Part shown: positions 10,799 to 16,123 of the stretch, one piece after another
How the letters are laid out: each line of letters starts with the position of its first letter
Numbering within the stretch: the first letter of the stretch is position 1
Origin: a virus
Reading direction: 5' to 3' (one strand)
IMG/VR virus record: IMGVR_UViG_3300035145_000581
Location: 1-22,495 of that record
Length of the DNA: 22,495 nucleotides
Translations under genes and position numbers: made by a program
The notes under the pieces: generated by a model
What the model was told of the DNA's origin: nothing
Database searches by the model: none
The model's input: only the letters and a program-made list of their open reading frames with translations

Positions 10799-11653
10799 AT
10801 GGCACAGCCTAAAAAGGTAAATTACCTTAACAACAAAGACATTCTAAAAGAAATACATAAGAGTAAGATGACTTATTGTTATGTAGCAGACGAAAAATAT
10901 GCAGATTTTGATGTAATTTTAGAAGATGTCAAAAAAATCAATAGAAACAGTATAAAGGTTGCAAGAGAAAATAGAGCATCTCAAATACAATCTGAAGGAT
11001 ATCAGGCCGCAATGGCATTACATGATCCTAAGGATTATAAAAACAAGCCTAAGCAAAAAGAATTTGCAATAGACCCTAAAAGTATAGACCAAGAAGACTT
11101 AGTTTTTAGAGTTATGGACATGGAACATATTCCATTAGAGCCAGGTAGAAAAAAGAATCCTAGAAACGAAGCAGAAACAAGAGCAAAAGTAAATTTTCCT
11201 CCTTTTAAACACTATGCTTTTGTAGGTGGAGAAATAAAAGAAGTTGCAAGAAGTCATTGGCAGGGCAGTTTAAGTAACGGAGAGTTTTCTGTAGATCATG
11301 GTAGAATAACAAATAAACTAGGAACAATGTTTTTAAAACTAGTTGAAAGATATTCGCATAGAGCAAACTGGCGTGGCTACACTTACGTAGACGAAATGCG
11401 TGGACAAGCATTGGTACAGTTGTCACAAATTGGATTACAATTTAATGAAGCAAAATCAGATAATCCATTTGCTTATTATACTGCCGCAGTTAATAATAGT
11501 TTTACTAGAATCTTAAATTTAGAAAAACGTAATCAAATGATTAGAGACGACATTCTAATAGATAGTGGTCATTTGCCAAGTTATGGTAGGCAGATACAAC
11601 ATGAAGAAGAAATGCGTCTACTAAGAGAAGAAGCACAAAATACTGAAGACTGA
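10799..11653 (+). CDS. gp55: Late transcription sigma factor gp55
   Basis: A 284-residue protein whose C-terminal part (~150-260) is the gp55 late sigma factor: HGRITNKLGTMFLKLVERYS, NWRGYTYVDEMRGQALVQLS, DNPFAYYTAAVNNSFTRILN. The WRGYxYxDEMxxxAL segment resembles sigma region 2, which binds core polymerase and the melted late promoter. T4 gp55 is 185 residues; here there is an N-terminal extension of ~150 residues starting NYLNNKDILKEIHKSK, with two charged segments and no domain I can name. The ATG at 10799 has GAGGAG 8 bases upstream; an overlapping ATG at 10795 is out of frame. The gene is driven by tandem late and early promoters and is followed 3 bases later by gp47. It would redirect host polymerase to the NATAAATA promoters in this window. 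Confidence 0.88.
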   Translation: MAQPKKVNYLNNKDILKEIHKSKMTYCYVADEKYADFDVILEDVKKINRNSIKVARENRASQIQSEGYQAAMALHDPKDYKNKPKQKEFAIDPKSIDQEDLVFRVMDMEHIPLEPGRKKNPRNEAETRAKVNFPPFKHYAFVGGEIKEVARSHWQGSLSNGEFSVDHGRITNKLGTMFLKLVERYSHRANWRGYTYVDEMRGQALVQLSQIGLQFNEAKSDNPFAYYTAAVNNSFTRILNLEKRNQMIRDDILIDSGHLPSYGRQIQHEEEMRLLREEAQNTED

Positions 11654-11656
11654 TAT

Positions 11657-12673
11657 ATGGCTCAACTGTTTAAGACAGCGGCCTGTTTTACGGATATACA
11701 TTACGGATTAAAACAGAACAGCCGTTTACATTTAGAAGATTGTCACAGATATGTAGACTGGTTTATTGCAGAAGCAAAAGCCAGAAATGCAGAGACCTGT
11801 ATATTCCTCGGCGATTGGAACCATCATAGAGCAAGTATTAGTGTTGCTACAATGAATGCATCTATTAAGGACTTTAAAAAATTAAATGATGCCTTTGAAA
11901 AAGTATATTTTATTACAGGTAATCACGATTTATATTACAAAGATAAAAGAGAGTTAAACAGCATTGAGTATGCTAGAGATTTATCTAATTTTGTAATGGT
12001 AGATGAGCATTTCCTACAGGATGATGTTGCAATTATACCTTGGCTTGTTGGTGATGAATTCAAACAAGTACAAAAAATGAAATGCAAATATATGTTTGGC
12101 CATTTTGAACTTCCATACTTTAAAATGAATGCAATGGTAGAGATGCCAGATCATGGAGGCATTAATGATAAAATGTTAAGTGGGCCAGATTATGTGTTTA
12201 GTGGACATTTCCATAAAAGACAGTTTAAAAATAATATACATTATATAGGCAATGCTTTCCCACACAATTACGCAGACGTAGATGACAACGAGAGAGGCGC
12301 CATGTTCCTTACATGGGGAGAAGAGCCACTGTATGTTAATTGGGCAGAATGTCCTAAGTATAAAGTGTTTACACTAAAACAATTATTAGATGATCATGCA
12401 AACTTATTAGACCAATACACTTATGCAAGGGTCAAACTAGATATCAGTATTTCTTATGAAGAAGCAAACTTCATAAGAGAGAAAATGGCTGAGCAGTATA
12501 AAGTCAGAGAGTTACAACTTATCCCTATAAAAGAGGAAGAAGAGTATGAAGGTGGCGATATAAGTTTTGAAAGTGTTGATCAAATTGTTATACAGCAATT
12601 AGAAACAATAGAAAGTAATACAGTAGATAAAGATGTTTTGATAGACATCTATAACAGCATAGAAACGCAATAA
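11657..12673 (+). CDS. gp47: Recombination endonuclease subunit gp47 (Mre11/SbcD family)
   Basis: A 338-residue metallophosphoesterase, the nuclease subunit of the gp46/gp47 complex, which resects DNA ends for recombination-dependent replication. The metal-binding motifs are all present: TDIH (Asp13, His15), GDWNHH (Asp53), GNHD (Asn89, His90), GHFELP (His149) and GHFH (His184, His186). The length matches T4 gp47 (339). The last base of its TAA stop is the first base of the gp46 ATG, so the partners are translationally coupled, as expected for subunits of one complex. Confidence 0.95.
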   Translation: MAQLFKTAACFTDIHYGLKQNSRLHLEDCHRYVDWFIAEAKARNAETCIFLGDWNHHRASISVATMNASIKDFKKLNDAFEKVYFITGNHDLYYKDKRELNSIEYARDLSNFVMVDEHFLQDDVAIIPWLVGDEFKQVQKMKCKYMFGHFELPYFKMNAMVEMPDHGGINDKMLSGPDYVFSGHFHKRQFKNNIHYIGNAFPHNYADVDDNERGAMFLTWGEEPLYVNWAECPKYKVFTLKQLLDDHANLLDQYTYARVKLDISISYEEANFIREKMAEQYKVRELQLIPIKEEEEYEGGDISFESVDQIVIQQLETIESNTVDKDVLIDIYNSIETQ

Positions 12674-14439
12674 TGTTAAAGATAAAAAACGTATCAGCAA
12701 AAAACTTTATGAGTGTTGGCAACAACACACAGGCAGTTAATTTTGATAACTGTCAACTCACTCTTGTGCTAGGACACAATTTAGACATGGGAGGAGATGG
12801 TAGCAGAAACGGTACAGGTAAAACTACGATAATAAATGCTCTCAGTTATGCTCTTTATGGAGATGCCTTAACAAACATTCGTAAAGATAACCTTATAAAC
12901 AAAACAAACGGTAAAGGTATGATTGTTACTGTGGAGTTTGAGATAGAAGGCAAGTCTTATCGTATAGAAAGAGGCAGACGTCCTAATGTACTAAAATTAT
13001 ATATAGATGGCGAAGACGCAATTAATGAAGAGCAACAAGGCGACAGTAGAGAAACACAAAAAGAAATAGAAAAGATTATTGGTTTTCCACACAATATGTT
13101 TAAGCATTTGATTGCACTAAACACATACACAGAACCTTTCCTTGCAATGAAGAACAATGATCAACGTGATATGATTGAACAGTTGTTGGGTATTACAGAA
13201 TTATCTGAAAAGGCAGAAGTATTGAAAGAAAGACAAAGACATACAAGAGAAAATATCAGAGAAGAAGAAATCCGTATAAATGCTGTAGAAGAAAGTAACA
13301 AACGTATAGAAAAGAATATCAAAGAGATAGAAAGTCGCAGTAGAGCATGGGAAAAGAATAAGGAAGATAAACTTATAGAATTAGGTGAGAAAATAATTCG
13401 TATGGAAAGAATAGACATCGATACAGAATTAGCAAACCATAAGTTATTAACAACTATCAAAGATCAAGTTGCACAAAAGAATACTTTAGAAGCAGATCAG
13501 AAAAGATTAACTAATAGTGCAGATCGCAGTAAGGCTAAACTGGAAGAACTTAAAAGTAATTTACTAAGTGCTAAAGAAGGTGTATGCCCTGCATGTGGAC
13601 AGGATACAGCACATTTAGAAACACATGAGGAATACACAGAAGAACTGCAAGAAAAGATTACGGCAGAAAAAGAATACTATGATGATTTAGAACTACAACT
13701 ATTAAAAACCTGTGGAGCAATTGATGAATTAGGTGATATTCCTGAAGTTCCAGAAGTATATTATAGTACATTGGAAGAAGCATTAGAACATAAACATAAT
13801 GTGGATTCAATGCAAACAAATTTAGAAACAATGGCATTGGATGTAAATCCTTACATAGAACAAATAGAAGGATTGCAAACTACAGGCATACAGGAAATTA
13901 GTTTTGAGTTAATGAATGAACTTACACATTTACAAGAGCATCAGGACTTCTTATATAAACTGCTTACAAGTAAAGACAGTTTTATCCGTAAAAGGATTAT
14001 AGATCAAAATATAGCATACTTAAATCACAGATTAGCACACTATTTGGATAAACTAGGACTCCCACATGATGTTAAATTTGCCAGTGACTTAGGCGTAGAA
14101 ATTACAGAATATGGCAGAGACTTAGACTTTGATAATTTAAGTAGAGGTGAACGTAACAGACTAATACTTGGATTAAGTTGGAGTTTCAGAGACATATACG
14201 AGAGTCTAAATAGACCCATGAACTTGATGTGTATAGACGAACTAATAGACAGTGGTATGGACAGTATGGGTGTAGAAAACGCCTTGGGTATTTTAAAGAA
14301 AATGCATAGGGAATCCAGTAAAAATATTATGTTAATATCGCATAAAGAAGAACTAGTTGGCCGTGTAAATAATGTATTAACTGTAGTAAAAGAAGGCGGT
14401 TTTACAAGTTATAACACGGACACTGAATATGTTAATTAA
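12673..14439 (+). CDS. gp46: Recombination endonuclease subunit gp46 (Rad50/SbcC family)
   Basis: A 588-residue SMC-like ATPase partner of gp47. The Walker A region, GGDGSRNGTGKTT (residues 40-52, Lys50), is preceded by the extended loop common in marine T4-like phages. Two coiled-coil arms (~180-300 and ~320-430) flank a zinc hook, CPAC (305-308). The ABC signature LSRGERNRL begins at 489, Walker B LMCIDE is at 518-523, and the switch His is in ISHKEE (His557). All parts needed for activity are present, and the length is close to T4 gp46 (560). It overlaps the next gene by 11 bases. Confidence 0.95.
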   Translation: MLKIKNVSAKNFMSVGNNTQAVNFDNCQLTLVLGHNLDMGGDGSRNGTGKTTIINALSYALYGDALTNIRKDNLINKTNGKGMIVTVEFEIEGKSYRIERGRRPNVLKLYIDGEDAINEEQQGDSRETQKEIEKIIGFPHNMFKHLIALNTYTEPFLAMKNNDQRDMIEQLLGITELSEKAEVLKERQRHTRENIREEEIRINAVEESNKRIEKNIKEIESRSRAWEKNKEDKLIELGEKIIRMERIDIDTELANHKLLTTIKDQVAQKNTLEADQKRLTNSADRSKAKLEELKSNLLSAKEGVCPACGQDTAHLETHEEYTEELQEKITAEKEYYDDLELQLLKTCGAIDELGDIPEVPEVYYSTLEEALEHKHNVDSMQTNLETMALDVNPYIEQIEGLQTTGIQEISFELMNELTHLQEHQDFLYKLLTSKDSFIRKRIIDQNIAYLNHRLAHYLDKLGLPHDVKFASDLGVEITEYGRDLDFDNLSRGERNRLILGLSWSFRDIYESLNRPMNLMCIDELIDSGMDSMGVENALGILKKMHRESSKNIMLISHKEELVGRVNNVLTVVKEGGFTSYNTDTEYVN

Positions 14440-15217
14440 TGTTAATCTCGGAAAAGACAAAATAAATTATACACTTGTATATGAATTATTTGATAACAGA
14501 GTTGCCAAAAGAATTTGGCAAAGGTTCAAAGAAAACGAATATAAACTTTTAAGTCACGATAGATTTTATGGATTCGGAGAGACTAAAGAAGAAGTAGAAA
14601 TACTTTTACAAGAGGATATAGAAAACCTACAAAGACTTAAACCTGATCTGTACTTACCCGAAGACGATTTAAATTACTTGCATGAAAATTTTGTAGAAGT
14701 ACACCGTAGTTTATCCCCCGAAGAAGATGAAGCAAGATATTGGTTAAGTAAATTTAATTACGACATACACCATTTAGAGACCTTTGATATAGGTTTGCCT
14801 ACTCGTTTTATTACTACCACTGAAGATGACGGCGAGCCCTTAATAGATAGCGATTACGATTTATTTGATAAAAATATTTTGAAAAATCATTTATATATGA
14901 ACTACCCTCATGTAGGAAAAGAGATTATGGGAATGTATCAAAATAATGACGTTGATATTCCTCCTGAACAAATTATGCCTACAAGTGTTCTTAAAAATGA
15001 TTTATTTGGCTGGTTTAATCCTGATAGAATTTGGACTGAACGTTTAGATATTATGCAGAAAAGATTCCTAGCAAAAATACATAACAAACTTCCTTATCCT
15101 TTGGAAGACAAAAGACTGGCAATAGGTAAATTACCATTGGGTAAACTAGCACACGAGCCAAACATACAGTCTATTAAAGAGAATAGATATATTCATTCTA
15201 TAATTGCAACACAGTAA
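14429..15217 (+). CDS. Unknown protein, last gene of the gp55-gp47-gp46 operon
   Basis: A 262-residue protein I do not recognise. It is soluble-looking, rich in Asp, Glu, Leu, Asn and Tyr, with no signal peptide, membrane segment or cysteine cluster. Visible features are an N-terminal strand pair (MLINVNLGKDKINYTLVYEL), an acidic middle with NYDIHHLETFDIGLPTRF, and a C-terminal basic stretch around FLAKIHNKLPYPLEDKRLAI. The start ATG at 14429 lies inside the gp46 end, overlapping by 11 bases, so it is probably translated by the same ribosomes. The context suggests a role linked to DNA processing or late transcription, but nothing in the sequence proves this. A short hairpin plus T-run follows directly after its stop. 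Confidence 0.75.
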   Translation: MLINVNLGKDKINYTLVYELFDNRVAKRIWQRFKENEYKLLSHDRFYGFGETKEEVEILLQEDIENLQRLKPDLYLPEDDLNYLHENFVEVHRSLSPEEDEARYWLSKFNYDIHHLETFDIGLPTRFITTTEDDGEPLIDSDYDLFDKNILKNHLYMNYPHVGKEIMGMYQNNDVDIPPEQIMPTSVLKNDLFGWFNPDRIWTERLDIMQKRFLAKIHNKLPYPLEDKRLAIGKLPLGKLAHEPNIQSIKENRYIHSIIATQ

Positions 15218-15219
15218 TT

Positions 15220-15237
15220 AGGTCCTACGGACCTTTT
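15220..15237 (+). terminator. Possible rho-independent terminator of the gp46 operon
   Basis: AGGTCC and GGACCT form a perfect 6-bp stem with a TAC loop, followed by four T residues, starting 3 bases past the last stop of the operon. The T-run is short, so read-through into the region beyond is likely. A second, longer hairpin (TTTCAAAC 15235-15242 with GTTTGAAA 15279-15286, then CCTTTTT) follows and could be a backup. Confidence 0.5.
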
Positions 15238-15455
15238 CAAACTACATTCTTCGTTTCGTTTCACTACACTCATCATTTGTTTGAAACCTTTTTAAAGTAG
15301 ACCGTTATCATGTATGTTGGAGCCATAACTCACCTATACAGGTGAGTAAAGTGTCATCATGTGATGTCATCGCCTTCTTAACTTCGGGTGCTATTAGGAA
15401 CCGGTGAGCCTTCTGTCCCCATACACTACCGTCACGAATCTCACGGAAGCCACAT

Positions 15456-15490
15456 AACCTAAGTAAGTTCAGTTATATAACTTGTAGGTT
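15456..15490 (+). other. RNA hairpin with asymmetric internal loop
   Basis: AACCTA (15456-15461) pairs with TAGGTT (15485-15490). Inside it AAGTT (15465-15469) pairs with AACTT (15479-15483), with AGT opposite a single G between the two helices and a 9-base loop. The right arm also overlaps TGTAGG (15483-15488), which can pair instead with CCTACA (15506-15511). Confidence 0.5.
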
Positions 15491-15550
15491 GCTTTTTGCT
15501 CAGAGCCTACATCCTTTTAATACTGTTTAACGTGTGTTTGTATCTTTGCC

Positions 15551-15637
15551 GTCATACATCTCCAGAGTCCCGCACCAGGTTTACTGGATTGTCAAGGAGC
15601 CCGATTTTATTTGCCTCGGTTAGGGCTGGTGTATGAT
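15551..15637 (+). other. Predicted RNA three-way junction
   Basis: The closing helix pairs GTCATACATC (15551-15560) with GGTGTATGAT (15628-15637), 10 bp including two G-U. Directly adjoining it is TCCAG (15561-15565) with CTGGA (15584-15588). After a 9-base linker comes AGCCC (15598-15602) with GGGCT (15623-15627), which abuts the closing helix. Two of the three junction strands have no unpaired bases, an arrangement that allows coaxial stacking and is unlikely by chance. Confidence 0.5.
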
Positions 15638-15700
15638 CCTATGTGTGCCTATGTTTGTGCCTTGTGTGCCGTAATAAGAGTTATTATCAGCAAATAGTTA

Positions 15701-16123
15701 TCAAGTCCTTAAGGCTTCCTTTAGGATTTCTGAGCCGCCTACTCTAACGTTGATAATACCGTTATAATATTCGTCTGTAAGTAGGACTTTTCTTTCGAAT
15801 TGTTCTTGTGCTTCTAAGTAACTAGCAACACCTCTACTAGGGCAGTAGTACAGTATTTCTCTACGAAAATTCTCTTCTCCTAGTTCTTCTACATCTGCTT
15901 TTAAATGATCGTTACTACCCCAATATGTACGCCAGTCGCTTTCTTTATAACCACGACGTTTGTTCTTTTTGCCTTTTAGTGGAGGCTTTGTTGTTTTAAA
16001 TTTGGCAAGTTTTTTACCAACATATTTTCTGTCATTGGTTTTATTTGTAATAAGATATACAAATGCTTCGCAGTCCTCTGGAAGTTCAGTAACTTTTTTT
16101 CTGTTATAAATCCAATCGCTCAT
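15701..16123 (-). CDS. GIY-YIG-like endonuclease-family protein
   Basis: A 140-residue protein with a GIY-YIG-type nuclease core. FVYLITNKTNDRKYVGKK (21-38) gives VYL...YVG in place of GIY...YIG. YWGSNDHLKADV (67-78) and an acidic helix with YLEAQEQFE (Glu104 as the likely metal ligand) follow, and YYNGIINV (119-126) supplies the late Asn. A basic insert (KTTKPPLKGKKNKRRGYK, ~44-60) could bind DNA. Proteins of this type are common in marine T4-like phages and are usually called putative endonucleases; biochemical function is unproven. Its ATG overlaps the stop of the gp51-like frame as TAATG, placing it third in the gp26 operon, which argues for a stable phage role rather than a recent homing insertion. 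The structured RNA gap lies just beyond its stop. Confidence 0.75.
   Translation of the reverse strand: MSDWIYNRKKVTELPEDCEAFVYLITNKTNDRKYVGKKLAKFKTTKPPLKGKKNKRRGYKESDWRTYWGSNDHLKADVEELGEENFRREILYYCPSRGVASYLEAQEQFERKVLLTDEYYNGIINVRVGGSEILKEALRT

What the first reader, a model, noticed from the sequence alone, without database searches (positions are those of the whole stretch)
15288..15690. Structured RNA candidate of about 400 nt in a gene-free gap
A compact phage genome rarely leaves 480 bases empty. This gap has higher G+C than its flanks and several strong complementary arms, including a three-way junction whose helices abut without spacers. G-U pairs indicate the plus strand. It lies between convergent operons, next to a GIY-YIG gene. 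Large ornate RNAs such as GOLLD and ROOL occur in phages, but I cannot match this one to either.
Basis: partly seen in the sequence, partly recalled or inferred. Interest (0 to 1): 0.8.

Follow-up and report, generated by a model that had tools for sequence, protein, structure and literature searches.

The report
New phage RNA with twin motif
The gene-free gap is a real, undescribed RNA gene shared by many marine and jumbo phages; it folds into a conserved knotted shape and carries one fast-changing short sequence twice, always as matching copies, which suggests it recognises a partner that has not been found.

Summary
171 close homologues and about 45 distant ones occur in viral contigs. On 50 close homologues, 39 base pairs including two pseudoknots are formed in 98.2% of cells; 27 pairs show changes on both sides (0 of 500 shuffles; slid controls 33-45%). 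Nothing in Rfam 15 matches. It is single-copy and in most contigs lies 3' of recombination genes gp47-gp46 and usually of a SegE-type GIY-YIG gene on the same strand; in the window the GIY-YIG+RNA cassette is inverted relative to them. The isolated Agrobacterium phage Atu_ph07 also carries it. The unexpected part: a hypervariable 7-12 nt element occurs twice, once near the RNA's 3' end and once in a hairpin loop. The copies are identical within each RNA (60/60 at six positions, about 33 paired substitutions) although they differ widely between phages. No complementary partner was found inside the RNA, within 1.5 kb, or in 31-126 kb of phage sequence. Best guess: a bivalent base-pairing RNA whose partner (host RNA, or its own gene) is unknown. 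Existence and strand are well supported; function is inferred.

The parts
15303..15640 (-). structured RNA, conserved extent (5' end near 15640, possibly up to ~15690; 3' end at or beyond 15303)
   Evidence: Homologues at 70-98% identity in 171 loci; covariation; strand from A.C versus G.T counts, alifold and sense orientation with upstream genes in other phages.
15552..15636 (-). three-way junction: closing helix 15552-58/15630-36, hairpins 15571-78/15584-91 and 15601-04/15616-19
   Evidence: Compensatory changes, e.g. 15601/15619 C-G, T-A, A-T, G-C; 15571/15591 C-G, G-C.
15483..15511 (-). hairpin with the most conserved loop (GAGAAAAAGCAAC in most homologues; GAGCAAAAAGCAAC in the window)
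   Evidence: 97.6% of cells paired, 4 of 6 pairs with double changes; loop nearly invariant from close to distant members.
15448..15482 (-). long hairpin 15448-58/15472-82, the strand-diagnostic helix
   Evidence: 98.8% of cells paired when read on minus, 10 of 10 pairs with double changes; about 90 A.C versus 7 G.T in plus letters over its pairs.
15377..15467 (-). pseudoknot 1: 15377-83 pairs with 15462-67 inside the loop of the long hairpin
   Evidence: 6 of 6 pairs with double changes, 99.0% paired; also CTTGTTA/TAACAAG, CTTAACTA/TAGTTAAG etc. in distant members.
15405..15443 (-). pseudoknot 2: 15405-08 with 15440-43 (GUGAG/CUCAC type)
   Evidence: 100% paired, 3 of 4 pairs with double changes; covaries in distant members (GTTGA/TCAAC, GTCGT/ACGAC, GCGTA/TACGC).
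15388..15426 (-). helices 15388-94/15421-26 and 15397-401/15415-19
   Evidence: 95.9-100% paired, with double changes.
15353..15366 (-). twin element, copy B (plus: GTCATCATGTGATG), placed in a hairpin loop in distant members
   Evidence: Identical to copy A at all scored variable positions in 148 of 171 close loci; 15304=15353, 15305=15354, 15310=15359, 15311=15360, 15312=15361, 15313=15362 in 60 of 60.
15304..15316 (-). twin element, copy A (plus: GTTATCATGTATG), near the RNA 3' end
   Evidence: As copy B; fixed T/C difference at 15306/15355 in 60 of 60.
15329..15346 (-). hairpin separating the two copies of the element
   Evidence: 404 of 420 cells Watson-Crick, with compensatory changes.
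15220..15295 (+). two terminator-like hairpins (GGTCCTACGGACC-TTTT; CAAAC...GTTTG-T run) facing the opposing transcript, on the RNA's 3' side
   Evidence: Covarying stems 15223-24/15230-31 and 15236-42/15279-85; present on the same side in distant members.
15695..15702 (-). possible late promoter (GATAACTA; this phage's late motif looks like GATAAATA)
   Evidence: Motif scan; ATAA(C/G)TA recurs here in many homologues. Weak, not tested by experiment.
15701..16123 (-). SegE-type GIY-YIG gene directly 5' of the RNA on the same strand
   Evidence: PF19835, E 9e-33; adjacent and 5' on the RNA strand in 147 close and 38 distant members.
11657..15217 (+). gp47 (SbcD-like), gp46 (SbcC-like) and a 262-aa protein; in most other contigs these lie 5' of the RNA on its own strand
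   Evidence: PHROG 100 and 77; synteny table.

Best explanation
SHOWN: an undescribed class of phage non-coding RNA, about 340-400 nt, encoded on the minus strand here, with a three-way junction, a hairpin with a near-invariant A-rich loop, and two pseudoknots. SHOWN: it carries a hypervariable 7-12 nt element twice, copy B ahead of copy A on the RNA, and the copies stay identical to each other while differing between phages. INFERRED: the rigid fold presents the two copies so that the RNA base-pairs bivalently with one and the same partner nucleic acid; each change of the partner selects a matching change in both copies. In distant members the two copies differ only by transitions at their edges (RNA sense: R-UCU-[element]-A versus R-CUC-[element]-G), which a single RNA partner could tolerate through G.U wobbles. 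INFERRED: expression with the gp47/gp46 recombination genes and the opposing terminators on its 3' side suggest it is made during recombination-dependent replication and shielded from antisense transcription. The partner is most likely a host or distant phage transcript not covered here.
For: Covariation including pseudoknots: 98.2% of cells paired, 27 of 39 pairs with double changes, 0/500 shuffles, slid controls 33.4-44.7%; 90.1% over 53 close+distant members. Model R1 built only from close members finds distant members (E down to 5e-18), and each of 13 long records incl. the window has one strong hit. Twin identity: the top two scores of the whole covariation scan are identity, not complementarity, between 15311/15360 and 15315/15365; 148 of 171 loci perfect; 17 variants: 7.82 of 8 matches within an RNA versus 4.79 across, 0 of 272 cross pairs exact; about 34 parsimony changes in A mirrored in B, also between RNAs 99.6% identical over the core. 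Atu_ph07 has all features, element AUGAAU twice as GACUC-AUGAAU-G and GAUCU-AUGAAU-A. Synteny and strand.
Against: No partner was found: no covarying complement inside the RNA, none within 1.5 kb, no enrichment in the loci or in 12 contigs of 31-126 kb; those tests have little power for a 7-nt site, and host transcripts were not tested. The wobble argument fits distant members better than close ones, where copy B has one extra base. No transcript has been seen. Two alphaproteobacterial members (Alsobacter soli, a MAG) keep the core but not an obvious twin element, so the element is not needed for whatever the core does.
Confidence: 0.42

Rival explanations
1. Self-targeting in cis: copy B, in a loop of the nascent RNA, hybridises with the template DNA strand of copy A in its own gene, giving a persistent RNA-DNA hybrid that primes replication or stops transcription. 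Plasmid ColE1 RNA II does something similar with its G-rich loop and downstream C-rich template (from own knowledge).
For: Explains why no other partner is found and why the sequence drifts freely with A=B as the only rule. Copy B precedes copy A in the RNA, as needed. The RNA sits next to gp46/47, recombination-replication genes.
Against: No consistent replication-strand break at the RNA in 8 of 9 long contigs (only one contig breaks within about 1 kb); the cumulative GC-skew minimum lies 4.5-7 kb away in most and follows gene orientation. The edges of the copies differ in ways that mismatch an RNA-DNA hybrid.
Confidence: 0.22
2. The twin element is a pair of binding sites for a fast-evolving RNA-binding or RNA-cutting protein, for example the adjacent SegE-type GIY-YIG protein acting with the RNA as a ribonucleoprotein.
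For: GIY-YIG lies directly 5' on the same strand in 185 members and moves with the RNA when the cassette is inverted.
Against: Seven distant members with room for it have no adjacent GIY-YIG yet keep RNA and twin element; Melnitz has the gene without a convincing RNA match. Almost arbitrary sequences are easier to reconcile with base pairing than with protein recognition.
Confidence: 0.2
3. The two copies are DNA repeats kept alike by recombination or conversion, without meaning at the RNA level.
For: Both copies change together even between near-identical RNAs.
Against: A fixed T/C difference at 15306/15355 (60 of 60) lies between co-changing positions on either side, and a fixed one-base length difference is kept, which conversion tracts would erase.
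Confidence: 0.06
4. Template for a reverse transcriptase that jumps between identical short repeats, as in telomerase or DRT-type defence RNAs.
For: Identical short repeats flanking a segment are what template jumping needs.
Against: No RVT_1 gene in 14 long contigs, while the control genomes rang.
Confidence: 0.02
5. A decayed gene or chance hairpins.
For: Single-sequence folding is no better than shuffles.
Against: Compensatory changes; lengths modulo 3 even and no kept frame.
Confidence: 0.01

Closest known systems
GOLLD and ROOL RNAs
   Same: Large, pseudoknotted, single-copy non-coding RNAs of phages and prophages with unknown function.
   Different: No Rfam match at E up to 10; smaller; carries the twin hypervariable element, which I know from neither.
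ColE1 RNA II replication primer
   Same: A sequence in an upstream RNA loop is repeated at a downstream site of the same transcript (from own knowledge).
   Different: No sequence relation; plasmid, not phage; here the repeat is hypervariable and flanked by different fixed bases.
OMEGA / HEARO and RAGATH-18 reRNA (guide RNAs of IscB and TnpB), IS110 bridge RNA
   Same: Structured RNA beside a nuclease or recombinase gene, with a variable recognition stretch.
   Different: The adjacent gene is a SegE-type GIY-YIG protein, not RuvC or DEDD; no Rfam match; the locus is not mobile in position; the recognition stretch is present twice in the RNA itself.
Type III toxin-antitoxin RNA (ToxI)
   Same: RNA with repeated short elements next to a nuclease gene.
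   Different: ToxI is a tandem array of whole folded repeats; here two short copies lie in different structural places of one large fold.

Membership tests
GOLLD / ROOL (Rfam) | Match to the family covariance model | tested here: not met
   cmscan of the window at gathering and of the gap at E up to 10; 16 further loci at gathering: no match.
HEARO / OMEGA guide RNA | Match to the family model | tested here: not met
   No Rfam match.
HEARO / OMEGA guide RNA | RuvC-type nuclease gene beside the RNA | tested here: not met
   Neighbours are SegE GIY-YIG, gp46, gp47, baseplate hub.
Self-splicing group I intron | Match to the group I model | tested here: not met
   No Rfam match.
Self-splicing group I intron | Lies inside a gene or exon pair | tested here: not met
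   Lies between complete convergent genes.
ColE1 RNA II-type primer | Upstream loop sequence identical to a downstream stretch of the transcript | tested here: met
   Twin element in 148 of 171 loci; order B then A on the minus strand.
ColE1 RNA II-type primer | Replication starts at the locus | tested here: inconclusive
   Skew analysis shows no consistent break; an experiment is needed.
RT template RNA (telomerase, DRT) | Reverse transcriptase gene in the genome | tested here: not met
   PF00078 absent from 14 long contigs, which are incomplete.
Type III antitoxin RNA | Tandem array of folded repeats with a ToxN-like gene | tested here: not met
   Two short separate copies only; the adjacent gene is PF19835 SegE_GIY-YIG.

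The most novel reading that the evidence does not exclude
A new class of programmable phage RNA: a rigid pseudoknotted scaffold that displays one hypervariable recognition sequence at two places, evolving under an identity rule, so that the RNA is retargeted by paired mutations. It would act together with recombination genes gp46/47 and often a GIY-YIG nuclease.
Probability: 0.3. Interest if true: 0.95.

Novelty: categorically new. Interest (0 to 1): 0.82.

Why it matters
It adds a widespread RNA gene to a well-studied phage group and places it at a core recombination locus. Two RNA segments that covary as identical rather than complementary bases is a pattern I do not know from other RNA families, and it makes a sharp prediction: an unknown partner that reads both copies. 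Because a full-featured member occurs in an isolate with a cultured laboratory host (Atu_ph07 on Agrobacterium tumefaciens C58), this can be tested. The novelty rating rests on Rfam 15 and an open-access paper library only.

Tried and rejected
Rfam at gathering and relaxed thresholds: nothing. blastn of five family members against 50,697 phage records: no relevant match (also core alone). Single-sequence folding: not significant. Internal third strand pairing with both copies: none. Covarying target within 1.5 kb: none (an earlier version timed out). Enrichment of the element in loci or in 12 contigs: none. RT template idea: no RT. Replication origin by skew: not supported except in one contig. 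Box C/D (RUGAUGA) reading of the close-family element: dropped because distant members do not keep it. PA5oct match (20.4 bits, in a 911-bp gene-free gap): left as doubtful; no twin element and no clear pseudoknot. TM6 and Micrarchaeota pattern hits: rejected, long helix not formed. Searches of 385 Alphaproteobacteria and 397 genomes of the order of Alsobacter found no further members. Literature searches found no description.

Full report
What was claimed. The gap is real: no ORF of 50 aa or more between 15218 and 15700, G+C about 0.44 against 0.28-0.36 around it, no Rfam match, no tRNA. By itself the sequence folds no better than shuffles on either strand, so the case had to be made by comparison.

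Homologues. Using the flanking genes as bait in IMG/VR, blastn found the gap in some 50 other loci at 69-98% identity. Lengths modulo 3 are evenly spread and no frame is kept open, so it is not a decayed or hidden gene.

Structure and strand. A tree-based covariation test on 61 non-redundant homologues gave strong complementary pairs in at least seven helices. Counting letters at those pairs showed the strand: the helix 15448-58/15472-82 has three columns in which G-C or C-G, A.C or C.A, and A-T or T-A alternate and G.T never occurs, so the wobble intermediates are G.U on the minus strand. Minus folds better in close and distant sets. On the minus-strand alignment A1 a hand-written structure of 39 pairs, including two pseudoknots, is formed in 98.2% of cells; 27 pairs have double changes; no shuffle reaches this; slid versions fall to 33-45%. 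The structure was derived partly from these sequences, so the slid control flatters it, but distant members, not used to derive it, show the same pseudoknots with other sequences, and a model built from close members finds them at E down to 5e-18. On the joint alignment, fitted to the model, 90.1% of cells pair.

Setting. In the 12 long contigs and the window, the model finds one strong copy each, besides one weak stray match. In nine of those 12 contigs the order on one strand is gp47, gp46 (SbcD- and SbcC-like), sometimes a 262-aa gene, usually a SegE-type GIY-YIG gene, then the RNA; in all 12 a baseplate gene converges from the other side (PHROG and Pfam). Of the other three, one has GIY-YIG on the opposite strand, one has gp46/47 a few kb up, and in one gp46/47 were not found in the fetched part. 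In the window and near relatives GIY-YIG and RNA are inverted together with respect to gp47-gp46. GIY-YIG is adjacent and 5' in 147 close and 38 distant members but missing beside some distant ones. Terminator-like hairpins for the opposing transcript lie on the RNA's 3' side in the members read.

The twin element. The two best scores of the whole covariation scan were not complementary pairs but identical ones: 15311=15360 (T, C or A) and 15315=15365 (A, T or G). Reading the sequences shows a short element present twice, in close members as (G/C)T-T-ATCANGN... and (G/C)T-C-ATCANGN..., the copies 46-72 nt apart, with a hairpin between them. In 148 of 171 loci all eight variable positions agree. 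Among 17 distinct variants, copies within an RNA match at 7.82 of 8 positions, copies from different RNAs at 4.79, and none of 272 cross pairs is exact. On the tree about 34 changes in copy A are mirrored in copy B, even between RNAs 99.6% identical over the core. Distant members have quite different elements (AGAUGAU, AGAUAAA, AAAUGAA, GAAUAAU, ACCGAA, ACUACAA, AGCACAU and others in RNA sense), again twice. There the copies differ at their edges only by transitions: R-UCU-[element]-A for copy A, R-CUC-[element]-G for copy B. Fixed differences inside the close-family repeat speak against mere DNA homogenisation.

Partner. I looked for what both copies might pair with: inside the RNA, in 1.5 kb on either side, in the loci, and in 31-126 kb of 12 phages. 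Nothing stood out. These tests cannot see a single 7-nt site and did not include host transcripts. No reverse transcriptase is present in 14 contigs, and skew gives no general sign of a replication origin.

Beyond marine contigs. The broader model R2 gave a weak hit in the jumbo phage Atu_ph07 (17 bits). Reading it, the long helix TATAGCGT/ACGCTATA, pseudoknot 1 GTAGTAAA/TTTACTAC, pseudoknot 2 GTTGT/ACAAC and the twin element GACUC-AUGAAU-G / GAUCU-AUGAAU-A are all present in a gene-free stretch. This is independent support for both the fold and the twin rule. Core-only relatives without a clear twin occur in an alphaproteobacterial MAG contig (59 bits) and in Alsobacter soli, there directly 3' of a large serine recombinase gene. 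T4, S-PM2, HTVC008M, phiM12, S-SRM01 and Melnitz have no convincing match.

Judgement. Shown: existence, fold, strand, breadth, synteny, twin identity. Inferred: that the twin element pairs with a common partner, and that the RNA acts in the setting of gp46/47. The self-DNA model and a protein-reading model remain open. Novelty was checked against Rfam 15 and open-access papers only.

Noticed in passing
L369 2561-4730 (Alsobacter soli SH9): A core relative of the RNA lies just 3' of a large serine recombinase gene, near an apparently interrupted comM-like gene, suggesting a mobile element that carries the RNA core.
   Followed up: partly
window 14429-16123: Compared with G001-G005, G007 and G013, the GIY-YIG gene and RNA are inverted together between gp46/47 and the baseplate gene, as if they were one cassette.
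   Followed up: partly
window 3191, 10681, 17263 (minus); 17228, 19600 (plus): GATAAATA motifs before structural genes look like the late promoters of this phage; gene 10799-11653 is a late sigma factor (PHROG 12791).
   Followed up: no
L377 810-1721 (phage PA5oct 12810-13720): A 911-bp gene-free gap with a weak model match (20.4 bits) but no twin element; may hold a more distant RNA of this kind.
   Followed up: partly
window 15640-15675: Loose tandem repeats of TGTGCC (GGCACA on the RNA strand) at the presumed 5' end of the RNA, variable in number between homologues.
   Followed up: no
window 14429-15217: 262-aa protein with no Pfam or PHROG match and no relative in named phages, found in close relatives and in G013.
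   Followed up: no
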